Source of the DNA: a virus
Direction: 5' to 3' (one strand)
IMG/VR virus record: IMGVR_UViG_3300050015_000167
Span: 64,001-128,000 of that record
Length of the DNA stretch: 64,000 nt
Positions 14,915 through 64,000 of this stretch are shown here, piece by piece; positions within the stretch are counted from its first letter, which is position 1, and every line of letters starts with the position of its first letter. The notes below the pieces were generated by a model. It made no database searches. It was not told the DNA's origin and saw only the letters and a program-made list of their open reading frames with translations. A program made the translations under genes and the position numbers.

Positions 14915-14994
14915 CGCCGCGAGTAGTTCAGTTGGTAGATCATTCGATCTTTCATGGTCGGAAGCGCGTGGGTTCGAATCCCGCCTTGTGGCGA
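14915..14994 (+). tRNA. Degenerate tRNA, anticodon unclear (TTC or CAT)
   Basis: Acceptor CGCCGCG/TGTGGCG with two G-T pairs, ordinary D arm (TAGTTCAGTTGGTAGATCA) and good T arm, but the anticodon arm CGATC-TTTCAT-GGTCG has a six-nt loop, and the 3' end reads AAAC where CCA is expected. Possibly a tRNA pseudogene. Confidence 0.5.
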
Positions 14995-17455: not shown

Positions 17456-18133
17456 TTATTTTAATGACCATCCATTTGTATGATTGGTTTCGTATAATTT
17501 TCGTCCAGGAATTTTTTGTTCTTTACAAAACTGTAGTAAAGATTTTAAACCCAATATATTGAATATTTCTCCTAATGGTGAAATGATATTATATATTTTG
17601 GATCGTCTCATATTAGATTCTTTGGAATGTTTTGTTCCTAACATAGATTTTCTTTGTTTTTCTTTTTGATTTTCGGAAATTGGTATTCCTTTTTTCCAAG
17701 AACCGCCATTATTTTGTATATGTTCTTTAATTGAAATTGATTGTTGTTTTTTAGATTCTTCGGAACGAATTTTTCCTTTATTAGCATCCGAAAGTTTTTT
17801 TCGGTGTTCTTTGGATGGAGTTCCAGGGGCACCCTCCCCACCAGGTCTTATATTATAACCTGAATTTTTGGAATTATATAACCTTATAAAATAAGGTTCC
17901 ATTTCTTTAAGTGTATGATCTTTAGATAAACTGCAATAAATGGTTTCTATTGAGAAATTTTCTGGACCATATTTGTTGATTGCCGAATATAATTTTGTTT
18001 TATTTGGAAAAATTTTAGAACATGAAATATGTTGTTTCCATCTGCGTTGAATAGAACCACCTGTATAACCAATATAAACTTTATTGTTGAACTTATTCGT
18101 TATTTTATAAATGTAATAAATATTACTTTGCAT
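17456..18133 (-). CDS. GIY-YIG homing endonuclease
   Basis: A 225-residue nuclease: YYIYKITNKFNNKVYIGYTG at residues 6-25, NKYGPENFSIETIYC, YFIRLYNS, then NUMOD3-like repeats and a C-terminal LGLKSLLQFCKEQ module also present in HNH proteins of this phage. It abuts the 3' end of tRNA-Leu, as its paralogue at 13570 abuts another tRNA. A TATAAATA late box ends exactly 5 nt before the ATG with no ribosome site, so a leaderless late mRNA is predicted. Confidence 0.88.
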   Translation of the reverse strand: MQSNIYYIYKITNKFNNKVYIGYTGGSIQRRWKQHISCSKIFPNKTKLYSAINKYGPENFSIETIYCSLSKDHTLKEMEPYFIRLYNSKNSGYNIRPGGEGAPGTPSKEHRKKLSDANKGKIRSEESKKQQSISIKEHIQNNGGSWKKGIPISENQKEKQRKSMLGTKHSKESNMRRSKIYNIISPLGEIFNILGLKSLLQFCKEQKIPGRKLYETNHTNGWSLK

Positions 18134-18138
18134 GGTAG

Positions 18139-18146
18139 TATTTATA
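18139..18146 (-). promoter_or_regulatory. T4-type late promoter
   Basis: Perfect TATAAATA on the minus strand, 5 nt before the GIY-YIG ATG at 18133. Confidence 0.75.
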
Positions 18147-18161
18147 TGGAGTGTAATTCTG

Positions 18162-18395
18162 GTGCCTTATTACGAATACGAATGTAAAGAATGTGGCGCA
18201 TGTTTTGATGTGTTCCAACATATGGATGATGCACCCTTAAAAAATCATTCAGAAATGATAGATGATTTGAGTAAAGATTGCAATTATTATCCCCACAATA
18301 AAGATTGTGGTGGTCTTTTAGAAAAAAAGATTTCGGCGCCGATGTTGCGGTTTGTTGGTCCGGGATTTTTCGTAAACGATTATAAAAAGAAGTAA
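18162..18395 (+). CDS. FmdB-type zinc-ribbon protein
   Basis: A 77-residue protein beginning VPYYEYECKECGACFDVFQH, the classical FmdB start (MPxYEYxCxxCG), with a second Cys region (CGGLLEKKISAP). I use GTG at 18162, which gives that family start and has TGGAG about 10 bases upstream. FmdB proteins are small putative regulators; their phage role is unknown. A second one is at 59669. Confidence 0.8.
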   Translation: MPYYEYECKECGACFDVFQHMDDAPLKNHSEMIDDLSKDCNYYPHNKDCGGLLEKKISAPMLRFVGPGFFVNDYKKK

Positions 18396-19171: not shown

Positions 19172-20257
19172 ATGAAATTTCCTATTCTCTATCATAAAGG
19201 TAAAACCGGTGCTCTGGTTCAATGGACAGTTTGGACCGAGAGTAATATTATTTTTGCAGAACATGGTCAGGTAGGCGGTAAATTACAGATCACACCCGGC
19301 ATCGAATGTTCCGGAAAGAATATAGGTAAATCTAACGAGACTACTCCAGAACAGCAAGCTATTGCAGAAGCAAAGGCAATGTGGACCTTTAAAGTGGAGC
19401 GTAAGTATTCAGAAACAAAAGAAGACGCACAAGAGGAAGTATTTCTTCCGATGCTTGCTGGAAAATTTACAACAAGAAAAAATAAGATTATCTATCCTGT
19501 GTCTGTTCAACGAAAAATTGATGGACTACGGTGTGTTGCATCTTGGTCGGGAGATAATATTCGGTTGATGAGTAGGTCTGGTAAAGACTTGAATCTTCCT
19601 CATATTCAAAAAGAATTGGAATCTTTTTTACCAAGGGAAGTTGTTTTGGATGGGGAATTATATACACATGGAATTCCATTCCAAACAGTTACTTCTTGGA
19701 TAAAAAAGTTGCAACCCGAATCGCAAAATATACGTTATTTGGTTTATGATTGCCCTGAATATTGTGGAGTATCTAAAGTGTGGATGGATAGATTAAAAGA
19801 TCTGAAAATATTATTCGTTAATAAACATAAAAATATTGACTTGTTAGAAACCCACACGGCTCGTAATGAAGAGGAAGTCCAAAATTTACAAAAACAATTT
19901 GTTCAGGAAGGATACGAAGGTGCCATTATTCGTATCAATACAGGACAATACTTGTATGGATTTAGAAGTAATGATTTACTTAAATTAAAAGATTTTGATG
20001 ATGCTGAATTTAAAGTTGTGGGGTTTGAAAAAGGAATAGGTAAATTTGAAAATGTTCCTATTTTTGTTTGTGAAACAAAAGAAGGTAAAACATTCAAAGT
20101 AACACCAAAAGGGACTCAAGACTACCGAGAAAAACTTCTTAAAAATATAAAGAAATTTATCGGAAAACAATTGACTGTAAGATATTTTGGGGTTTCGCAA
20201 GATTTGATTCCTAGATTTCCGGTAGGTATAAGTTTCAGGGAATCATTTGATATTTAA
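19172..20257 (+). CDS. ATP-dependent DNA ligase
   Basis: A 361-residue ligase. Motif I KIDGLR is at residues 115-120 (nucleophile K115), LDGELY at 159-164, EGAIIR at 249-254, LLKLKDF at 269-275, then an OB-fold region. Residues 1-75 (ALVQWTVWTESNIIFAEHGQ region) look like a WGR-type nucleic-acid-binding domain, which T4 gp30 does not have. It is shorter than gp30 (487). It should seal nicks in phage DNA. The 3' end is overlapped by a convergent HNH gene. Confidence 0.9.
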   Translation: MKFPILYHKGKTGALVQWTVWTESNIIFAEHGQVGGKLQITPGIECSGKNIGKSNETTPEQQAIAEAKAMWTFKVERKYSETKEDAQEEVFLPMLAGKFTTRKNKIIYPVSVQRKIDGLRCVASWSGDNIRLMSRSGKDLNLPHIQKELESFLPREVVLDGELYTHGIPFQTVTSWIKKLQPESQNIRYLVYDCPEYCGVSKVWMDRLKDLKILFVNKHKNIDLLETHTARNEEEVQNLQKQFVQEGYEGAIIRINTGQYLYGFRSNDLLKLKDFDDAEFKVVGFEKGIGKFENVPIFVCETKEGKTFKVTPKGTQDYREKLLKNIKKFIGKQLTVRYFGVSQDLIPRFPVGISFRESFDI

Positions 20258-20845
20258 TTGATAACGTCTTTTTTGGCTTTCTGATATCTTTCTTTTGGTT
20301 TCATCGGAATGATGTTTGTCTTTAAAAGGATTTTTGTTTCCAGAAACATCTGCGTGATTTTTAGAAATTTTATTTTTGGTTTCTTCCGAAATAAATTTAC
20401 CTTTTTCGGATTCAGAGATTTTCTTTTTATGTTCTTCGGTAAATTTTATTCCTTTTCGAGGAGAAGCCATTTTATTTTTTGATTCTTCGGAATGTTTTCT
20501 TCCGTACATTGGATGATTTTTCTTAGAATTTAAAGTACAATGTTTTTGTTTAATGCGTTCAAACATTTTGGAGTTTACTATTCGTTTCTGTTTTCTTGTA
20601 ACCTGTCCCATTCTAAGGAATGCGTAGTACATTTTTCCTAGTAATTTTCCGGTTACCATCTTGAGTAATAAATGATGACAGACCCAATGTTCCTTAAAAG
20701 TCAGAATTACGGTATCCATACCACCAGCACACTTTGGAATAATATGGTGTTTCTCTGTATATTCGGATGGTTTTGGTCTTTCCTTAGCTCTAGCAATAAT
20801 CTGGTAGTAGGTCTTGGTGTACTTGTTTCTTTTAAAAATTGACAT
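20243..20845 (-). CDS. HNH homing endonuclease (KTYYQII family)
   Basis: A 200-residue HNH nuclease with the family signature NKYTKTYYQIIARAKERPKP, then YTEKHHIIPKCAGG (HH), LTFKEHWVCHHLLLKMVTGK (HNH continuation), MYYAFLRMGQ and C-terminal SEESKNKMAS-type NUMOD3 repeats. Its stop overlaps the ligase stop region. Its first bases, ATGTCAA, are the reverse complement of the -35 TTGACAT of the next gene, and a CATAAATA late box lies 7 nt before its ATG inside the spacer of that promoter. Confidence 0.9.
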   Translation of the reverse strand: MSIFKRNKYTKTYYQIIARAKERPKPSEYTEKHHIIPKCAGGMDTVILTFKEHWVCHHLLLKMVTGKLLGKMYYAFLRMGQVTRKQKRIVNSKMFERIKQKHCTLNSKKNHPMYGRKHSEESKNKMASPRKGIKFTEEHKKKISESEKGKFISEETKNKISKNHADVSGNKNPFKDKHHSDETKRKISESQKRRYQLNIK

Positions 20846-20867
20846 TTACATATATTTATGTTATACT
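20839..20867 (+). promoter_or_regulatory. Sigma70 promoter overlapping the HNH start codon
   Basis: TTGACA (20839-20844), 17-bp spacer, TATACT (20862-20867). The -35 lies over the first codons of the minus-strand HNH gene. Confidence 0.87.
20853..20860 (-). promoter_or_regulatory. Late-type box for the minus-strand HNH gene
   Basis: CATAAATA inside the sigma70 spacer, 7 nt before the HNH ATG. Confidence 0.5.
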
Positions 20868-20874
20868 ATAAATA
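20867..20874 (+). promoter_or_regulatory. T4-type late promoter
   Basis: TATAAATA, exactly 5 nt before the ATG at 20880; its first T is the last base of the sigma70 -10. Confidence 0.7.
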
Positions 20875-20879
20875 GTATT

Positions 20880-21197
20880 ATGAAAACCTATAAAGAAATT
20901 TGTCGAGAAGCGTATCAAGCGGAAACTCTCAATTCCTATGGTTATCATGGACCCTTTAGAGGAGTAGACGGACATAATTCGTTTATTGATGATGATAAAA
21001 CCATTCTTGTTGATCTTGGGGGAAATGAATGGCATTATATTTTTGATGAGATTGTCCGGGAAGTAGGAAAATTAGATGATGATTCTCTTTCAAATTTTCT
21101 GGCCGGTAAACCAAATGTGTCGGAAGATAAGGAATTAGAAAAAGCAAAGATTTATGAACCAGGAGAAGGTTCACAATCTATAACGGAGAAACATTAA
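20880..21197 (+). CDS. Hypothetical protein (105 aa)
   Basis: A 105-residue acidic protein (MKTYKEICREAYQAETLN...). No family recognised. It has overlapping sigma70 and late promoters directly upstream and no ribosome site; the late transcript would start on its ATG, the early one about 5 nt before. The stop codon overlaps the first base pairs of tRNA-Gln. Confidence 0.65.
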   Translation: MKTYKEICREAYQAETLNSYGYHGPFRGVDGHNSFIDDDKTILVDLGGNEWHYIFDEIVREVGKLDDDSLSNFLAGKPNVSEDKELEKAKIYEPGEGSQSITEKH

Positions 21198-37344: not shown

Positions 37345-37919
37345 TGTTCTCAACAGCTACCGCAATAATGACATTCGTCCGGATACAACCGCCTACGAAA
37401 TCTCATGAATTTCTTTTCCAAAAATTATATAATTTGGCTTGTGATATGGGAAATCCTTGGCAATATATTTTTATTTCTCCATCCTGTGATAATAAAAATA
37501 ATCCGTTATCTTTAGAATACCGGTATAATTTTGTAAAAGAACTTTATCCCGGATTGAATTTTATTGCTGATCCAGAAATCCGAAATCCTTTTCAAGCAAT
37601 TGTAATGTTAGGAAAACATTGTTTTGAAAAAGTGATTATCGTATGCGGTGAAGACCGAGTAGAAAAATACCAAACTTTTAGAAAATATATAAATCATCCG
37701 GACCCAGAAAAAACAATACCGACTGTTCAGGAAATTGAGGTTATATCAGTGGGTGATAGGAAACAAAATTCTTTTAATTTTCTGGAAACAATAAGTGCGA
37801 GTGCTTGCCGAGAGGCTGTCAAAATAGGAGATTTCTCTAAATTTGTATCTATGGTTCCAAAATGTAGTAAGGAAAAACAAGAAAATTTATATCAGGAAAT
37901 CCTAAAGGGCTTGAAGTAA
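37329..37919 (+). CDS. Nucleotidylyltransferase-like protein
   Basis: A 196-residue member of the cytidylyltransferase/NMN-adenylyltransferase superfamily: FVRIQPPTKSHEFLF corresponds to the (H/T)xGH signature, with S-H where G-H is usual, and ISASACREAVKIGDF to the ISSTxxR motif. Reaction unknown. This gene follows the ligase-like gene with a 16-base overlap, a pairing I have seen described in T4-type phages. A convergent HNH gene overlaps its end. Confidence 0.8.
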   Translation: MARKIMFSTATAIMTFVRIQPPTKSHEFLFQKLYNLACDMGNPWQYIFISPSCDNKNNPLSLEYRYNFVKELYPGLNFIADPEIRNPFQAIVMLGKHCFEKVIIVCGEDRVEKYQTFRKYINHPDPEKTIPTVQEIEVISVGDRKQNSFNFLETISASACREAVKIGDFSKFVSMVPKCSKEKQENLYQEILKGLK

Positions 37920-38498
37920 TTTCTTTTTTATACGATATTCTTTCATAGATTCAGAAATATGTTGTTTGTGCTCTTTGGAAAGTGAAATTATTTTTCTCGG
38001 TTTGGTTCCTTTTTTATAAGGTTTTCTTGGTTTAATTTCACCTTTATAGGGACCACGAGGATTATATATCCTATATTTTCTGATTTCTTTTTGTTTCGCT
38101 TTGGTTTCCTCTGATAGAAACCTTTTTGATCCGAATACCGGACTATTTTTACCAGAACATAATTCTCTATTGGCTATTTTTATCCTCTCAAACATTTTAG
38201 AATTTATTTTCCTTCTATTTTTACCGTTAAGATGACCCATCCGATTAAAAGCATAATACATTTTTGCTTTTAGTTTCCCCGAAACCATCTTGAGTAATAA
38301 ATGATGTACTATAAAATGTTCCTTAAAGGTTAAAGTAACCTTTTCCGATTCCGGTAATCCCAAATACTTGGTAATACATTTTGGAATAGTATGATGATTT
38401 TCCGTATAACAATCTGGTTTGGACCGTTTCTTGGCTCGGTCGATAATTCGGAAATAAGTTTTGGTGTATTTGTTTTTGATATAAATAGATTTAGACAT
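37902..38498 (-). CDS. HNH homing endonuclease (KTYYQII family)
   Basis: A 198-residue HNH nuclease: KNKYTKTYFRIIDRAKKRSK, YTENHHTIPKCITK, LTFKEHFIVHHLLLKMVSGK, MYYAFNRMGH, then basic repeats. I start at MSKSIYIKNK as in the paralogues. On the minus strand it has a TATAAATA late promoter and the GGGTGT/ACACCC leader hairpin. The stop lies within the end of the convergent nucleotidylyltransferase gene. Confidence 0.88.
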   Translation of the reverse strand: MSKSIYIKNKYTKTYFRIIDRAKKRSKPDCYTENHHTIPKCITKYLGLPESEKVTLTFKEHFIVHHLLLKMVSGKLKAKMYYAFNRMGHLNGKNRRKINSKMFERIKIANRELCSGKNSPVFGSKRFLSEETKAKQKEIRKYRIYNPRGPYKGEIKPRKPYKKGTKPRKIISLSKEHKQHISESMKEYRIKKKLLQAL

Positions 38499-38526
38499 CT
38501 GCGGTAATTTCCTACTGCTTTGTTTA

Positions 38527-38558
38527 GGGTGTGTTTTGGTTTCAGCCAGAATACACCC
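38527..38558 (-). promoter_or_regulatory. HNH-leader stem-loop, copy 2
   Basis: On the minus strand GGGTGT pairs with ACACCC, directly after the late promoter and about 28 bases before the HNH ATG. Confidence 0.6.
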
Positions 38559-38563
38559 ATACA

Positions 38564-38571
38564 TATTTATA
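38564..38571 (-). promoter_or_regulatory. T4-type late promoter
   Basis: Perfect TATAAATA on the minus strand, 5 nt before the leader hairpin of the HNH gene. Confidence 0.7.
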
Positions 38572-51543: not shown

Positions 51544-52791
51544 ATGGAACTTGAAATTCAAAAATATTTACGACGATATAAAGAAGGACAATTTCAACCA
51601 AGTCTTGTTGCCTTTCATTTATCCGAATTGGCAGCCGCGCCATATTTCTTGAATATCAAGAGACACCCGAAATATAATAATCTGATCCAATTTTCCTATG
51701 ACCAAATTGAATCTCCTAAAGCAGATCCGATCATCCGAGAATGCCGTGGTTTGATCCTTGATGAAGCCAATAATTGGAATGTTGTTGCTTTTCCTTTTAA
51801 GCGTTTCTTCAATGAAGGAGAAGGTACAGCAGATACTATTGATTGGAATACAGCAAGAGTCCAGGAAAAGGTAGATGGCACATTAATCATCATGTATTGG
51901 TATGATGGGACATGGCAGATTGCTACTCGTGGAAGTCCCGATGCTGGCGGTTCAGTTGGAGATGCATTGTTCACCAAGAATGGTGTAACGGGTCCGATGT
52001 CTTTCCGTGATCTATTCTGGCATAGTGCTGAATATTGGCTTGAAGGATTGAGTAAATCTGGTTTATTTAATACAGGACTTACCTACATGTGGGAATTGAC
52101 TTCTCCTTATAATCGTGTGGTTTGTGATTATACTGAAGTTGGTCCCATGGGAGAAATGATTGATGGTAATGGTGTCGTCACTTTTATGGACGACTTGGAA
52201 GATAAAACTGGTTATGCTTGTGATGGTTCACGTATCACTTTGATTGGTGTTCGTAACAATATGACACTGAAGGAATTGGATATTAGATGGTGTGTTGATG
52301 ATGTATACTACGTCACCAAAGAATTTCCTTTGACCAACTTACAGGAAGTAATCGATGCATCTGTGAAATTGAATCCTCTACGTCAAGAAGGTTTTGTTGT
52401 AGTGGATGCAAACTTCAATCGTATTAAGATTAAGTCGCCCGCTTATGTGGCTATTCATCATTTGCGTGATGGTTCACCGCAACGTCGTTTAATGGAAATC
52501 ATTAAGACTGGAGAGAATGATGAAATGATCTCCTATAAGATCTTGGATGATTTTCCAGCAGAGAAGAAAATGTATTTGGATATGAAAGAGAAGGTCGATA
52601 CCTTAATTATAAAAACTGAGGAGGTTTACGAATCTATTAAAGATATTTCCGATCAAAAAAGCTTTGCTTTGGAAGCCATTAAAAATAAATTATCTGGAGT
52701 TTTATTTTCGGTTAGAAAAGGACAATATAAAAGTATTAGAACAGGAATTTTATCGATTCAAACAGATAAACTTTTAGATTTTATTAGATAA
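51544..52791 (+). CDS. rnlA: RNA ligase, T4 Rnl1-like
   Basis: A 415-residue RNA ligase (T4 Rnl1 is 374). RECRGLILD, VVAFPFKRFFNEGE and motif I QEKVDGT (nucleophile K109) match the Rnl1 type, where a conserved R-G and FFN precede the lysine; motif IV QEGFVVVD and motif V IKIKSPAYV follow. In T4 this enzyme reseals tRNA cut by host anticodon nuclease with polynucleotide kinase, which is also present here (57090). An HNH gene converges on its end. Confidence 0.88.
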   Translation: MELEIQKYLRRYKEGQFQPSLVAFHLSELAAAPYFLNIKRHPKYNNLIQFSYDQIESPKADPIIRECRGLILDEANNWNVVAFPFKRFFNEGEGTADTIDWNTARVQEKVDGTLIIMYWYDGTWQIATRGSPDAGGSVGDALFTKNGVTGPMSFRDLFWHSAEYWLEGLSKSGLFNTGLTYMWELTSPYNRVVCDYTEVGPMGEMIDGNGVVTFMDDLEDKTGYACDGSRITLIGVRNNMTLKELDIRWCVDDVYYVTKEFPLTNLQEVIDASVKLNPLRQEGFVVVDANFNRIKIKSPAYVAIHHLRDGSPQRRLMEIIKTGENDEMISYKILDDFPAEKKMYLDMKEKVDTLIIKTEEVYESIKDISDQKSFALEAIKNKLSGVLFSVRKGQYKSIRTGILSIQTDKLLDFIR

Positions 52792-53346
52792 GGTTTTCTT
52801 TTTATAAGGGCCTCGTTTCTTCCCCAATTTGGCTAATGATTGTTTCTTTTTAGTTTCTTCTGAAACTATTTTTCCTTTTTCGGTTTCTGAAATTTTTCTT
52901 TTGGATTCTTCTGAAAATTTGTGTCCTAAAGATCTTTTATTTCCTTTGGCTAACTCAGACATTTTCTTTTTGGATTCATCTGAGTGTTTAAATGTTTTAC
53001 CAAATGACGGACTATTTTCTCCACAGTGAGATTTTCTATTGGTAATTTTTATTCGTTCAAACATTTTGGAATTAATAATTCTACAAGTAGTAGTTTTACT
53101 TTGGTAACCCATACGATTAAAAGCACACCACATTTTGGCTTTCAATTTTCCAGTAACCATTTTTAGCAACAGATGATGACATACCCAATGTTCCTTAAAC
53201 GTCAAAGGTACTGTATCCTTACCACCAACGCACTTCGGAATAATATGATGTTTCTCCGTATATTCGGTTGGTTTGGTTCTCGCCAACGCACGATCAATAA
53301 TCTGGTAATATGTTTTGGTGTATTTGTTACAGATAAAAGTTGACAT
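52774..53346 (-). CDS. HNH homing endonuclease (KTYYQII family)
   Basis: A 190-residue HNH nuclease: CNKYTKTYYQIIDRALARTK, YTEKHHIIPKCVGG, LTFKEHWVCHHLLLKMVTGK, MWCAFNRMGY, NUMOD3 units and the LGKKRGPYKKK tail. The ATGTCAA start is the reverse complement of the TTGACAT -35 region of the next gene. The C-terminus overlaps the end of the RNA ligase gene. Confidence 0.9.
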   Translation of the reverse strand: MSTFICNKYTKTYYQIIDRALARTKPTEYTEKHHIIPKCVGGKDTVPLTFKEHWVCHHLLLKMVTGKLKAKMWCAFNRMGYQSKTTTCRIINSKMFERIKITNRKSHCGENSPSFGKTFKHSDESKKKMSELAKGNKRSLGHKFSEESKRKISETEKGKIVSEETKKKQSLAKLGKKRGPYKKKTLSNKI

Positions 53347-53368
53347 TAGAATAATATTATGTTATACT
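53340..53368 (+). promoter_or_regulatory. Sigma70 promoter overlapping the HNH start codon
   Basis: TTGACA (53340-53345), 17-bp spacer, TATACT (53363-53368); MazG ATG 7 nt further. Confidence 0.87.
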
Positions 53369-53370
53369 TA

Positions 53371-53378
53371 TATTTATG
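53371..53378 (-). promoter_or_regulatory. Late-type box for the minus-strand HNH gene
   Basis: CATAAATA on the minus strand, 24 nt before the HNH ATG at 53346. Confidence 0.4.
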
Positions 53379-54772: not shown

Positions 54773-55438
54773 ATGTTTAACCACCTTAACATCGAAATCG
54801 CAGAAGTTGCCAAGCAAGTATCCAAAGATGATACAGGTGGACCAAGATTATATAAGACTCCACATGGTGATATTTACCCTTCAATCACCACAATTTTATC
54901 TCCATTGAAAAGAGAAATACTTGAGAAATGGCGAAAACGTGTAGGTGATAAAACTGCCGACGCTGAATCACAATGGGGAAAAGATCGGGGAACAGCAATA
55001 CATTTGGCAGCAGAAAATGTATTGAATAATGAAAGCATCATAGGACATCCACTTCTTGTCAGGATGTTAATTCAAGATTTGATGCCGTATCTCCGAAAGA
55101 TTAATAACATTCATTGCCAAGAACAACCGTTATATTCTGATTTTTTTGAAACGGCCGGCCGGTGTGATACGATTGGTGAATACGGTGGTAAACTTTCTAT
55201 CATAGATTTTAAAGGATCTAAACGTACCAAAAAGATCGAATGGGTCCAAGATTATTTTCTCCAAGTTTCGTTTTACGCATATTCCTATTATGAAAGAACC
55301 GGTTATAAAATAGAACAGGGAGTTATTCTGATTGCCAATGAACAGGGACAAGCTTCAGAATTCATTATTAATCCTTGGGAGTATTGGAGTAAACTAAAGG
55401 AGGTCCGGAAACAGTATAAGGAAGAATTTGGAATTTAA
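54773..55438 (+). CDS. RecB/Cas4-like PD-(D/E)XK exonuclease
   Basis: A 221-residue nuclease: PSITTILSPLKRE, DRGTAIHLAAENVL, ETAGRCDTIGEYGGKLSIID continuing FKGSKR, the H...D...D-x-K pattern of RecB-family exonucleases, then QVSFYAYSYYERTG (the QxxxY motif). It probably trims DNA ends in recombination or degrades host DNA. A convergent HNH gene overlaps its last four bases. Confidence 0.85.
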   Translation: MFNHLNIEIAEVAKQVSKDDTGGPRLYKTPHGDIYPSITTILSPLKREILEKWRKRVGDKTADAESQWGKDRGTAIHLAAENVLNNESIIGHPLLVRMLIQDLMPYLRKINNIHCQEQPLYSDFFETAGRCDTIGEYGGKLSIIDFKGSKRTKKIEWVQDYFLQVSFYAYSYYERTGYKIEQGVILIANEQGQASEFIINPWEYWSKLKEVRKQYKEEFGI

Positions 55439-55989
55439 AATTTCTCTTTATAAGGACCCCGTTTCTTTCCTAATTTAGCTAAAGACATTTTTCTTTTAGT
55501 TTCTTCTGTCCGTTTAGAACCTATATTAAATTCTAATAATTTCTTTTTGTGAATTTCTGTAAGTTTCCTTCCTACAGAATTTGTATTACCTTTAGCAGAT
55601 TTAGATTGTTTCTTTCTGGTTTCTTTAGAAACTTTTCTTTTGTAATTGATAGCATTTTCTCCAGAACAAGATAAAATATTAGCGAGTTTTGTTCTTTCAA
55701 ATATTTTAAGATTTATAATTCTTCCATTTTTACCATTGAATTGCCCCATCCGATCAAATGCTAACCACATTTTAGCCTTTAATTTTCCGGTAACCATCTT
55801 CAATAATAAATGATGGCAGATCCAATGTTCCTTAAAAGTTAATACCACAGTTTCCGTACCGCCGGCGCACTTTGGAATAGTATGATGTTTCTCCGTATAC
55901 TCTAATGGTTTCGGTCGTGCCAAAGCCCGATCAATAATCCGGTAATAGGTCTTGGTATATTTGTTATCGAGATAAATAATTTCAGACAT
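55435..55989 (-). CDS. HNH homing endonuclease (KTYYQII family)
   Basis: A 184-residue HNH nuclease: DNKYTKTYYRIIDRALARPK, YTEKHHTIPKCAGG, LTFKEHWICHHLLLKMVTGK, MWLAFDRMGQ, NUMOD3 units and an LGKKRGPYKE tail. It has a minus-strand TATAAATA late promoter (56057-56064) and a GGGTGTG leader hairpin, like the genes at 29811 and 38498. Confidence 0.9.
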   Translation of the reverse strand: MSEIIYLDNKYTKTYYRIIDRALARPKPLEYTEKHHTIPKCAGGTETVVLTFKEHWICHHLLLKMVTGKLKAKMWLAFDRMGQFNGKNGRIINLKIFERTKLANILSCSGENAINYKRKVSKETRKKQSKSAKGNTNSVGRKLTEIHKKKLLEFNIGSKRTEETKRKMSLAKLGKKRGPYKEKF

Positions 55990-56019
55990 CCGCGGTAATC
56001 CCCTTTACTGCATTGTTTA

Positions 56020-56051
56020 GGGTGTGTTTTGGTATCAGCCATTTCACACCC
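56020..56051 (-). promoter_or_regulatory. HNH-leader stem-loop, copy 3
   Basis: Minus strand GGGTGTG...CACACCC, seven perfect pairs, followed by TAAACAATGCAGTA as in the 38527 copy. Confidence 0.65.
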
Positions 56052-56056
56052 ACAAC

Positions 56057-56064
56057 TATTTATA
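56057..56064 (-). promoter_or_regulatory. T4-type late promoter
   Basis: Perfect TATAAATA on the minus strand, 5 nt before the HNH-leader hairpin. Confidence 0.7.
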
Positions 56065-56068
56065 TTTC

Positions 56069-56097
56069 TTGACATTTCAATTGTTTTATGATATACT
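56069..56097 (+). promoter_or_regulatory. Sigma70 promoter
   Basis: TTGACA (56069-56074), 17-bp spacer, TATACT (56092-56097). Confidence 0.87.
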
Positions 56098-57089: not shown

Positions 57090-58073
57090 ATGAAGAGAAC
57101 AGATCAAACAGCAACTATCACTATCGGGCTTCCAGCTTCAGGTAAAACCACTTGGGCAAAGAAGGAAGTTGAATCGGCAGAATTCAAAGGAAAGACTATT
57201 GTTCGGGTGAACAATGATGATATCAGAGCCGAGTTGAATGGTGATTCTGATGTTCCTTGGACTCCAGAGTTTGAAAAAAAGGTTCGCGCTATTCGTTTTG
57301 GTCGGATGGAACGTGCTCTCAAAGATGGTTTCGATATCATCGTTGATAATACCCATTTGAATTACAAGACTTTGAATAGCCTCAAGACTTGGTTGAAACA
57401 GAATTTCTCTCACGTTGCTATCATCGAAAAGAGTTTCCTTGATGTATCTATTCAGGAATGTTTGGATCGTGATAAGGCACGAGGTGATCGTGGAGAACGG
57501 TGTGTTGGTCCGGAGGTAATCATGAAGATGGTAAAAGACTCTAATCTAATACCAGAAGTTAAACCTTATCCTATTGATTGGGAATTACCATGGTGCGGTA
57601 TTTCTGATTTGGATGGAACTTTAGCATTATTTGGAAAAAGACGAAACCCTTACGATGCTTCAAAATGTGATTTGATCGATACTCCCAATCTATCAGTTTT
57701 GAATTTGTTAACCGCCTATCATGATATTTACCAATTAACAGAAATTGATGGTTATCCTTTTAAATTGGGAAGAGAAAAAATATCTAAAATCTTTTTCTTT
57801 TCTGGGCGGTCTGACCAATATAAAGAACCAACGATTAAATTTCTTTTAACTAAATGTAACTTTTATATTATTGATAATCCTTATTTTGAATTGGTCATGA
57901 GAGAAAAAGGAGATAATAGATCTGATGAAATTATCAAAAAGGAATTTTTTGATGCTCATATTGTAGGTAAATATAATGTATCTTTTGTGTGCGATGACAG
58001 AAACCGTGTTGTACGGTTATGGCATTCTCTTGGTTTACCCGTATTTAATGTTGGCACGGGAGAAGAATTTTAA
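57090..58073 (+). CDS. pseT: Polynucleotide kinase/3'-phosphatase (T4 PseT-like)
   Basis: A 327-residue bifunctional repair enzyme (T4 Pnkp is 301). Kinase P-loop GLPASGKT is at residues 13-20; RVNNDDIRAEL and the lid CLDRDKARGDRGERCVG follow. The phosphatase HAD motif SDLDGT has D173 and D175, with a late CDDRN motif. It heals 2',3'-cyclic phosphate and 5'-OH ends for RNA ligase. A decayed HNH gene follows its stop. Confidence 0.94.
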   Translation: MKRTDQTATITIGLPASGKTTWAKKEVESAEFKGKTIVRVNNDDIRAELNGDSDVPWTPEFEKKVRAIRFGRMERALKDGFDIIVDNTHLNYKTLNSLKTWLKQNFSHVAIIEKSFLDVSIQECLDRDKARGDRGERCVGPEVIMKMVKDSNLIPEVKPYPIDWELPWCGISDLDGTLALFGKRRNPYDASKCDLIDTPNLSVLNLLTAYHDIYQLTEIDGYPFKLGREKISKIFFFSGRSDQYKEPTIKFLLTKCNFYIIDNPYFELVMREKGDNRSDEIIKKEFFDAHIVGKYNVSFVCDDRNRVVRLWHSLGLPVFNVGTGEEF

Positions 58074-58211
58074 CTTTATAAGGACCGCGTTTCTTTCCTA
58101 ATTGTGCTTCCGATTGTTTCCTTTTATGTTCTAAAGTTTGGTGCGAATCTTAGCTCTATCGATAATCTGGTAGTAGGTCTTGGCGTATTTGTTACAAATA
58201 AAAGTTGACAT
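58074..58211 (-). pseudogene. HNH homing gene (KTYYQII family) with the core deleted
   Basis: From 58211 on the minus strand the frame reads MSTFICNKYAKTYYQIIDRA, then KIRTKL and a stop; right after it, in another frame, comes EHKRKQSEAQLGKKRGPYK, the family's C-terminal tail. The HH core and repeats between are lost. It sits exactly where intact copies sit: after a plus-strand stop and with ATGTCAA across the next gene's -35. Confidence 0.85.
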
Positions 58212-58233
58212 TCATTAGTATTTATGATACTCT
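58205..58233 (+). promoter_or_regulatory. Sigma70 promoter overlapping the HNH relic start
   Basis: TTGACA (58205-58210), 17-bp spacer, TACTCT (58228-58233, weak). Confidence 0.65.
58219..58226 (-). promoter_or_regulatory. Late-type box of the HNH relic
   Basis: CATAAATA on the minus strand, 7 nt before the relic's ATG, as at 20853. Confidence 0.45.
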
Positions 58234-58249
58234 GTAATAGAGACAAATT

Positions 58250-58624
58250 ATGATTTACGTTCCTAAACACGATGATATTGTGGATATGTTTTTGACACAA
58301 CATTCGGAAGAACGTATTCTTGGACGATTTCCCAAACTGAAATTTAAGGAAAATCTTAAAGTCTTTGTTTCATATTGTGAGAGTCCACGTGCCGAATCAA
58401 TGTGGGCAATTCCGATCGAAGGTGGTTATGTAATTGGTAAGTGGGTCCTTTCTACAAAAGGAAGTTATATCAAAGGTATCTTTATCGCTCAAACCGCATT
58501 GTATCATTGGCAGTTTAAGAGATCCGGTTTCATTAAAAAGATTTCGGTACAATTACAATTTAGACGTATTAATAGCCAAACAGCAAATAAGGAAAAAAGA
58601 AATGCTCATAAACGAAACGCTTGA
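58250..58624 (+). CDS. Hypothetical protein (124 aa)
   Basis: A 124-residue protein (MIYVPKHDDIVDMFLTQHSE...), beta-rich in the middle and very basic at the end. No family recognised. GAGACAAATT precedes the ATG. It overlaps the next gene by 23 bases. Confidence 0.65.
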   Translation: MIYVPKHDDIVDMFLTQHSEERILGRFPKLKFKENLKVFVSYCESPRAESMWAIPIEGGYVIGKWVLSTKGSYIKGIFIAQTALYHWQFKRSGFIKKISVQLQFRRINSQTANKEKRNAHKRNA

Positions 58625-62496: not shown

Positions 62497-63405
62497 ATGT
62501 CAATATTAATAGATTTTTCTCAAATCGCAATCAGTAATTTATTTGCGAATATTGGGTATGGCCATAAAGCCTCACAGGAGTTACCGGATGTGAGTGCTAC
62601 ACCGGGTACTCCCGGTACCAAAACGATAATAAATGAAGACTTGATCCGGCATATGGTTCTAAATTCTCTTCGAATGTATCATATGAAATTCGGAGAAAAA
62701 TATGGACCATTAGTTGTCTGTGCCGATAATCGTCATTATTGGCGTAAGGATATTTTTCCCTATTATAAAGCCAGTCGTAAAAAGACCCGAGATAATTCCG
62801 GGTTAGATTGGCATCTTATTTTTGATTCATTAAACAAGATTAGGGATGAGATTGCCGCATTTACTCCATACCGAGTTATCAATGTGAACCTTGCTGAAGC
62901 GGATGATTTGATTGGTGTTATTGCTAAGAAAGAACATACAGCGGAAAAGATTCTTATACTTTCAGGAGATCATGATTTCCAACAGTTACAGAAATACAAG
63001 AACATTGAACAGTATGCTCCAATCCAAAAGAAATTTATGACAACAGAGAATCCTATTGAGTTTCTCCGTGAACATATTATGGTTGGAGATGCTGGTGATG
63101 GTATCCCCAATTTTAAATCTCCTGATAATACCTTTGTTGCTGGTTTGCGGCAGACTTCAATTTCAAAGAAGGATTTAGCTCGGTGGATTAAAGAACCTAA
63201 GCCAGAGAATTTTTGTGATATCAAGATGTTATCTGGTTATAAACGTAACCAACAGCTTATTGATTTGGATTTTATTCCGAAAGATCTACAGAAAACGATT
63301 GTTGAACTTTGGGAAACACCCTATAAAGAATCTCGGAAAAATCTTTTGAATTATTTTATCAAATTCAAGTTGTCATTACTTTTGGATCATATAGGGGAGT
63401 TTTGA
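62497..63405 (+). CDS. rnh: RNase H / 5'-3' exonuclease (T4 Rnh-like)
   Basis: A 302-residue FEN-family nuclease (T4 RNase H is 305). Metal-site segments: LIDFSQ (D6), VVCADNRHYWRKD, NLAEADDLIGVIA, ILSGDHDFQQLQKY and GDAGDGIPNF. It removes RNA primers and flaps on the lagging strand. The predicted 5' leader is only about 2-3 nt. The end is overlapped by a convergent HNH gene. Confidence 0.93.
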   Translation: MSILIDFSQIAISNLFANIGYGHKASQELPDVSATPGTPGTKTIINEDLIRHMVLNSLRMYHMKFGEKYGPLVVCADNRHYWRKDIFPYYKASRKKTRDNSGLDWHLIFDSLNKIRDEIAAFTPYRVINVNLAEADDLIGVIAKKEHTAEKILILSGDHDFQQLQKYKNIEQYAPIQKKFMTTENPIEFLREHIMVGDAGDGIPNFKSPDNTFVAGLRQTSISKKDLARWIKEPKPENFCDIKMLSGYKRNQQLIDLDFIPKDLQKTIVELWETPYKESRKNLLNYFIKFKLSLLLDHIGEF

Positions 63406-64000
63406 GCATTTAAAACCTTTATGTTGTTTGTACTTTCCTTGACTCACAGAAACCATATTACCAGCAAATAAATTATTTTCTCTACAAAATTGTTTTAAAT
63501 TTTTAATAATTTTTATATCTCCTGAAGGATAAATAATTTCCCAATACCGAGATCTTGAATCAATCATTTTTAAAATTGTTTCATTGGGGAGTTTTTTATC
63601 TTTCCAATAACAATTATTTTCTCGTAATAATTGTGATGCTGACATTTTCCTTTTAGTTTCTTCTGTTGGTAATAATCCTTTATGACCCATAGATATTTTA
63701 TTTTTGGATTCTTTTGAATGTTTAAATCCTAACATATATTGATTTCCAAAAGATTGACTATTTTCTCCAGAACATGCATCCCTATTAGCAATCTTGATCC
63801 GTTCAAACATTCTGGAATTCACAATTCTTCCTTTTCTATATGAATTATTTTGTCCCATCCTATCGAAAGCATAATACATTTTAGATTGTAATATTCCTTT
63901 TACCATTTTGAGTAACAAATGATGACACGTCCAATGTTCCTTAAAAGTCAATGGAACCTTTTTGGATTCTGGTAACTCCAAATATTTGGTAATTGCTTGT
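63376..64000 (-). CDS. HNH homing endonuclease (KTYYQII family), 5' end outside window
   Basis: Partial: the visible 208 codons start within ITKYLELPESKKVPL and continue TFKEHWTCHHLLLKMVKGIL, MYYAFDRMGQ, NUMOD3-like units and a C-terminal YPSGDIKIIKNLKQFCRENN module. The ITKYLxLPES segment resembles the 37902 copy. The N-terminal NKYTKTYY part must lie beyond base 64000. It overlaps the last 30 bases of rnh. Confidence 0.87.
   Translation of the reverse strand, partial: QAITKYLELPESKKVPLTFKEHWTCHHLLLKMVKGILQSKMYYAFDRMGQNNSYRKGRIVNSRMFERIKIANRDACSGENSQSFGNQYMLGFKHSKESKNKISMGHKGLLPTEETKRKMSASQLLRENNCYWKDKKLPNETILKMIDSRSRYWEIIYPSGDIKIIKNLKQFCRENNLFAGNMVSVSQGKYKQHKGFKCSKLPYMIQK

What the first reader, a model, noticed from the sequence alone, without database searches (positions are those of the whole stretch)
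20839..20880. HNH start codon is the -35 box of the next gene (20839 case)
ATGTCAA of the minus-strand HNH gene is the reverse complement of TTGACAT of the plus-strand promoter; its late box CATAAATA lies in the same promoter's spacer, and a plus-strand TATAAATA begins on the last base of the -10. Four promoter elements and two start codons share about 45 bp. The same layout recurs at 53340 and 58205. A selfish gene that supplies its neighbour's -35 cannot be removed cleanly without hurting the host phage.
Basis: partly seen in the sequence, partly recalled or inferred. Interest (0 to 1): 0.8.

Follow-up and report, generated by a model that had tools for sequence, protein, structure and literature searches.

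The report
Antisense homing gene with outward promoter
In a T4-like phage, selfish DNA-cutting genes inserted backwards between early genes are accompanied by a promoter that fires outward into the neighbouring phage gene, at two live sites so tightly packed that the selfish gene's start codon is also the promoter's -35 box; this may let the insertion keep the neighbour expressed.

Summary
At 20839 the start codon of an antisense HNH/NUMOD3 (MobE-like) gene is the complement of the -35 (TTGACAT) of the next gene's early promoter. The same overlap occurs at 53340. At 58205 the HNH gene is a remnant with its core deleted and the -35 kept. Early promoters at endonuclease-free junctions are conserved (18 of 20 comparisons). 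The four promoters abutting intact antisense HNH genes (20839, 53340, 56069, and 64194 just outside the window) are absent from every endonuclease-free orthologous junction examined, so promoter and endonuclease were gained together there. Six of eight full-length modules, two of them on GIY-YIG genes in other phages, share the order: outward early promoter, inward late promoter, hairpin, ribosome site. The overlap looks like a compacted version. "Cannot be removed cleanly" is weak: relative L110 lacks gene and promoter, site 3 kept only the promoter, and G001 has a clean promoter there. The late box inside the spacer is no rarer than chance genome-wide. The retention idea was already published for T4 segG. 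Verdict: a new variant of a known kind; nothing has been measured.

The parts
20243..20845 (-). HNH/NUMOD3 free-standing homing endonuclease gene (site 1), antisense, between DNA ligase and a small conserved gene
   Evidence: Pfam NUMOD3 1e-16; PHROG 655 homing endonuclease 2e-40; about 36% identity to T4 MobE
20839..20867 (+). Early promoter TTGACA-17-TATACT; its -35 plus following T (20839-20845) is the complement of the HNH start ATGTCAA
   Evidence: absent in HNH-free G003 and L110
20853..20860 (-). CATAAATA, putative late promoter of the HNH gene, 7 nt before its ATG (predicted near-leaderless), inside the early promoter's spacer
   Evidence: position consistent with the genome-wide TAAATA-5..8nt-ATG pattern
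20867..20874 (+). TATAAATA, putative native late promoter of the + gene, 5 nt before ATG; TAAATA-5nt-ATG also at the empty site in G003 and L110
20880..21197 (+). Conserved small gene downstream of the early promoter; orthologs in G001, G003, L110
52774..53346 (-). HNH/NUMOD3 gene (site 2), antisense, between RNA ligase and MazG gene
53340..53368 (+). Early promoter TTGACA-17-TATACT, -35 overlaps HNH start; -10 is 7 nt from MazG ATG (53376)
   Evidence: absent in G003, G004
53371..53378 (-). CATAAATA on the minus strand, overlaps the MazG start codon; possible late promoter of HNH 52774
58063..58211 (-). HNH remnant (site 3): N-terminal codons 1-25 (58211-58137) joined out of frame to C-terminal ~23 codons (58131-58063)
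58205..58233 (+). Early promoter TTGACA-17-TACTCT kept at the remnant's start codon; + gene ATG at 58250
   Evidence: G001 ortholog 176098 has promoter without HNH, G003 none
55435..55989 (-). HNH/NUMOD3 gene with full 5' module (site 4)
55990..56097 (.). 5' module of 55435: ribosome site, hairpin, minus late box TATAAATA, plus early promoter TTGACA-17-TATACT (56069-56097)
63376..64000 (-). HNH/NUMOD3 gene (site 5), runs past the window end; same 5' module with early promoter at 64194 in window numbering (G000 128194), outside the window
37902..38564 (-). HNH gene with hairpin and late box but a decayed outward promoter

Best explanation
The HNH genes are free-standing homing-endonuclease genes (MobE-like, with NUMOD3) inserted antisense at junctions of early operons. 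Each intact insertion at sites 1, 2, 4 and 5 is accompanied by a divergent promoter pair: a late promoter facing into the endonuclease and a strong sigma-70-type early promoter facing out into the next phage gene. In the full form the order, read in the endonuclease direction, is: early -35 complement (ATGTCAAG), late box TATAAATA, 5' hairpin, ribosome site, ATG. At 20845, 53346 and the 58211 remnant the module is compacted: hairpin and ribosome site are missing and the start codon coincides with the -35. Inferred function: early in infection host-type RNA polymerase uses the early promoter, so the downstream gene is expressed although the operon is interrupted by an antisense gene; late in infection the phage late polymerase uses the opposite late promoter for the endonuclease. 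At 20839 the two footprints overlap, so the uses should be mutually exclusive in time. The outward promoter lowers the cost of insertion and can outlive the endonuclease. Shown: anatomy, co-occurrence, conservation pattern, remnant. Inferred: promoter activity, timing, fitness effect, and that the promoter arrived on the same DNA as the endonuclease rather than evolving just after insertion.
For: Anatomy. Base rate: early promoters of G000 at endonuclease-free junctions are kept at the orthologous junction in 8/8 (G001), 6/8 (G003) and 4/4 (G004) comparisons; the four HNH-abutting ones are kept in none (the wide interval scored at 20839 in G003 was checked by hand). Site level 0/4 against 9/10, p = 0.005. 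Best promoter score in HNH-free junctions -16 to -1 bits (20 junction records), HNH-bearing 21.6-25.4 (L227 is left out because one search shows that it carries a GIY-YIG gene). Empty junctions are often operon-like, with small overlaps or gaps of about 8-20 nt. The same divergent module is on GIY-YIG genes in L227 (at the same site 5 junction) and G004. The hairpin is kept through paired changes (folding z-scores -1.3 to -4.9). The remnant keeps the -35 while the core is deleted.
Against: No expression data. Few independent sites (four intact), and the relatives' records are not independent of each other. At site 3 and at G001 68676 the early promoter is present in an endonuclease-free relative, so some insertions may have landed beside a native promoter. 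Compacted copies do not form one clade in a short, weakly supported tree, so the compact form may have arisen more than once. One module (37902) has lost the outward promoter and in another (101328) it is about 100 nt away. An automatic count of outward promoters at antisense against sense endonucleases was only weakly significant (p = 0.016) and was disturbed by spurious ORFs.
Confidence: 0.62

Rival explanations
1. The early promoters were native. The endonucleases inserted exactly at the upstream edge of existing early promoters and took their ATG from the -35 complement; relatives later lost the promoters.
For: G001 has a TTGACATCC promoter at site 3 without HNH. At G001 68676 the HNH lies beside an early promoter that G000 (16192, minus) has without HNH. 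Early promoters are natural edges of transcription units.
Against: At sites 1, 2, 4 and 5 no endonuclease-free relative has the promoter, while other early promoters are well conserved; several empty junctions are overlapping genes with no room for a promoter.
Confidence: 0.22
2. The outward promoters evolved after insertion by point mutation, selected because the antisense gene blocked read-through. The family's common start ATGTCTAC is one synonymous change (TCT to TCA) from ATGTCAAC, the complement of a perfect -35.
For: Most full-form copies begin ATGTCT, and the three compact copies begin ATGTCAA; spacers and -10s differ between sites.
Against: In the full form the -35 is not at the start codon but next to the late box at a similar place in several copies and in two endonuclease families, which suggests common descent of the module.
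Confidence: 0.14
3. The overlaps are coincidences of AT-rich intergenic DNA and nothing is functional.
For: The late box in the spacer is as frequent as expected by chance over 136 promoters.
Against: Promoter scores far above background, extended TG, and association with antisense HNH starts.
Confidence: 0.02

Closest known systems
T4 free-standing homing endonucleases with embedded host promoters (segG with gene 32 promoters; segA, segE, mobB, mobC); review PMC2988022
   Same: A promoter needed by the downstream phage gene lies in or at the endonuclease, which is argued to favour retention of the endonuclease.
   Different: In T4 the genes are in the same orientation as their neighbours (only segD is antisense, with no promoter found) and the gene 32 promoters inside segG are middle and late. 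Here the gene is antisense, the promoter is early and outward, and it forms a divergent pair with the endonuclease's late promoter.
T4/Aeh1 MobE (HNH) and seg43(25) of Aeromonas phage 25
   Same: Sequence relatedness of the protein to T4 MobE; late expression signals; a stable hairpin upstream of the ribosome site as described for seg43(25) (PMC2988022).
   Different: T4 mobE is in an nrd operon in sense orientation without its own promoter; the hairpin here does not clearly cover the ribosome site and is missing in the compact copies.
PeSL mobile regulatory cassettes of T4-type phages (Arbiol et al. 2010, doi 10.1093/gbe/evq006; paper not held, content from my own knowledge, citation seen)
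   Same: A small intergenic cassette with an early sigma-70-type promoter and a stem-loop that accompanies gene insertions.
   Different: The stem-loop here lies in the leader of the late endonuclease transcript, is not followed by a T run, and a late promoter is part of the unit; terminator function was not shown.

Membership tests
Free-standing HNH homing endonuclease (MobE-like) | HNH/NUMOD3 homing-endonuclease sequence | tested here: met
   NUMOD3 above Pfam cut-off, PHROG 655, similarity to T4 MobE
Free-standing HNH homing endonuclease (MobE-like) | Sporadic presence: intact flanking genes adjacent without it in relatives | tested here: met
   empty junctions at sites 1, 2, 4, 5 in several relatives
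Free-standing HNH homing endonuclease (MobE-like) | Cleaves an endonuclease-free allele and is copied into it | not testable with these tools
   needs cleavage and mixed-infection assays
Endonuclease with embedded host promoter (T4 segG type) | Promoter of the downstream phage gene lies within the endonuclease gene | tested here: met
   -35 overlaps the start codon at 20839, 53340 and, in a remnant, 58205; only by 7 bp
Endonuclease with embedded host promoter (T4 segG type) | Promoter native to the site and displaced by the insertion | tested here: inconclusive
   not native at sites 1, 2, 4, 5; possibly native at site 3
PeSL cassette | Early promoter plus stem-loop that terminates transcription | tested here: inconclusive
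   early promoter and stem-loop present in the full module; no T run seen and no termination test; compact copies have no stem-loop
T4-type late promoter | TATAAATA-like box just upstream of transcript starts of late genes | tested here: inconclusive
   TAAATA 5 nt before the start in 12 genes of G000 against 0.12 expected; transcript starts and lateness not tested

The most novel reading that the evidence does not exclude
A portable 5' regulatory module (outward early promoter, inward late promoter, hairpin, ribosome site) is shared between unrelated endonuclease families (HNH and GIY-YIG) and works as a cost-lowering insertion adaptor: it restores early expression of the interrupted operon while restricting the endonuclease to late infection, and it can stay behind as a new phage promoter after the endonuclease decays.
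Probability: 0.35. Interest if true: 0.65.

Novelty: new variant of a known kind. Interest (0 to 1): 0.5.

Why it matters
If true, selfish endonuclease genes are a source of new promoters in phage genomes and carry the means to lower the cost of their own antisense insertion, which would help explain how so many (about 27 called in this genome) accumulate in one phage. The remnant at 58063-58211 is a possible case of a promoter left by a dead selfish gene.

Tried and rejected
Late box in the early spacer as a special signal: 2 of 136 promoters, 1.8 expected, rejected as a general signal. G001 68676 as a further start-codon/-35 overlap: the in-frame ATGTCAA is probably incidental; a later ATG (MFLDNKY) after a late-like box is the likely start. 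Compact copies as one clade: not supported by the tree. Automatic sense/antisense classification: unreliable because of spurious ORFs. L227 was first counted as an empty site 5 junction and then found to carry an antisense GIY-YIG gene with an outward promoter. A DNA search for the module in known phages gave no match. The PeSL and Aeh1 mobE papers are not held.

Full report
WHAT IS THERE. The window is bases 64001-128000 of a 176,794-base viral record (G000), a distant T4-like phage: its DNA polymerase is about 40% identical to cyanophage gp43 over its full length, and it has DNA ligase, T4-type RNA ligase, polynucleotide kinase-phosphatase, RNase H and RecA-like genes. At 20839-20882 the plus strand reads TTGACA TTTACATATATTTATGT TATACT ATAAATAGTATT ATG. 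The minus-strand HNH gene 20243-20845 begins ATGTCAA, the complement of TTGACAT. The same overlap is found at 53340 (HNH 52774-53346) and 58205. At 58205 the gene is a remnant: codons 1-25 joined out of frame to about 23 C-terminal codons of the same family, with the core missing. No other start codon is available for 20243 and 52774.

IS THE PROMOTER CREDIBLE. The family's early promoter was modelled from 85 sites in G000, G001 and G003, leaving out the sites under test: [C]TTGACA(TCC)-17-TGnTATAAT. The sites under test score 21.6 to 25.4 bits; a Markov genome gives about 1.5 hits above 15 bits. The late box inside the spacer is not unusual by itself (2 of 136 promoters, 1.8 expected), though both cases are at antisense HNH starts.

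Endonuclease-free relatives were found for each site. Site 1 (ligase / small gene): G003 and L110 have no HNH and no early promoter, only a late-type TAAATA 5 nt before the ATG, which G000 keeps; L110 has the letters TTGACAT but no -10. G001 has an HNH at this site, with its end overlapping the ligase end by 15 nt just as in G000, and an outward early promoter. Site 2 (RNA ligase / MazG): G004 has the genes overlapping, G003 has another insert, none has a promoter. Site 4 (PDDEXK / next gene) and site 5 (RNase H / next gene): no promoter in G001, G003, G004 and further contigs. Over 20 such junction records the best score lies between -16 and -1 bits, against 21.6-25.4 where the HNH is present. 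As control, early promoters of G000 at endonuclease-free junctions are kept in 18 of 20 comparisons with these relatives; at site level 9 of 10 against 0 of 4, p = 0.005. The remnant site 58205 is among the 20 comparisons but was left out at site level. So at four sites promoter and endonuclease were gained together. Site 3 differs: G001 has a clean promoter without HNH, G003 has none.

THE MODULE. The HNH copies at 55435 and 63376, G001 142247 and 179680, and antisense GIY-YIG genes in L227 (same junction as site 5) and G004 have, in the endonuclease direction, a -35 complement (TGTCAA), then TATAAATA within about 2-17 nt, a 5' hairpin, a ribosome site and ATG. The GIY-YIG identity of the L227 and G004 genes rests on similarity to a panel gene and on the read GIY motif; a Pfam scan of L227 failed on frame and was not repeated. 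The hairpin is kept by paired changes in several columns. In 37902 the outward promoter has decayed; in 101328 it is about 100 nt away. A divergent early/late pair without any endonuclease exists natively at G000 16179, so the module uses the phage's own signals. The copies at 20845, 53346 and 58211 lack hairpin and ribosome site and start at the -35; this may come from a deletion between the two ATGTC sequences of the full form or from a separate origin (inference).

HOW IT LIKELY WORKS. Inference: the early promoter keeps the interrupted operon's downstream gene expressed early; the late promoter restricts the endonuclease to late infection, in line with T4, where no endonuclease-specific promoter is early (PMC2988022). 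Because the -10 lies 6 nt before the ATG in many early genes and TAAATA lies 5-8 nt before the ATG in many genes, the HNH transcript at 20845 and the + transcript at 20880 should both have very short leaders or none.

COMPARED WITH WHAT IS KNOWN. Promoters of downstream genes embedded in T4 endonucleases, and the argument that this favours retention, are in PMC2988022. New here are the antisense orientation, the early outward promoter, the shared divergent module across HNH and GIY-YIG genes, and the direct comparison with empty sites. Lock-in is not shown: L110 may have lost both gene and promoter (the ligase tree places it with G001, which has the HNH; support 0.83), and site 3 lost only the gene.

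Noticed in passing
G000, G001, G003 genome-wide; e.g. window 1990, 13173, 18984, 53340: Early promoters end 6-7 nt before the start codon in a large share of cases (peak at 6 nt: 14 cases in G000, 19 in G001; 4 of 631 in shifted controls), so many early mRNAs are predicted to be leaderless.
   Followed up: partly
G000, G001, G003 genome-wide; e.g. window 18139, 20867: The late core TAAATA sits 5-8 nt before start codons far above expectation (12 at 5 nt against 0.12 expected in G000), so late mRNAs may also be leaderless.
   Followed up: partly
G000 whole record: About 27 homing-endonuclease-like genes were called in this genome, against 8 in G001 and 1 in G003.
   Followed up: no
window 18131-18133: A minus GIY-YIG gene (17456-18133) and a plus gene (18132-18395) start within the same CATG palindrome, with a minus late box inside the plus gene's first codons.
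   Followed up: no
L227 3158-3763: An antisense GIY-YIG gene in another phage at the same junction as the HNH gene 63376, with the same 5' module.
   Followed up: yes
window 14916-14993: A tRNA-like gene with a four-base anticodon reading (ttca) among 17 tRNA genes.
   Followed up: no
L110 4086-4106: The empty site 1 junction contains TTGACATAAATA just before the small gene; it may be a scar of a lost HNH or coincidence.
   Followed up: partly
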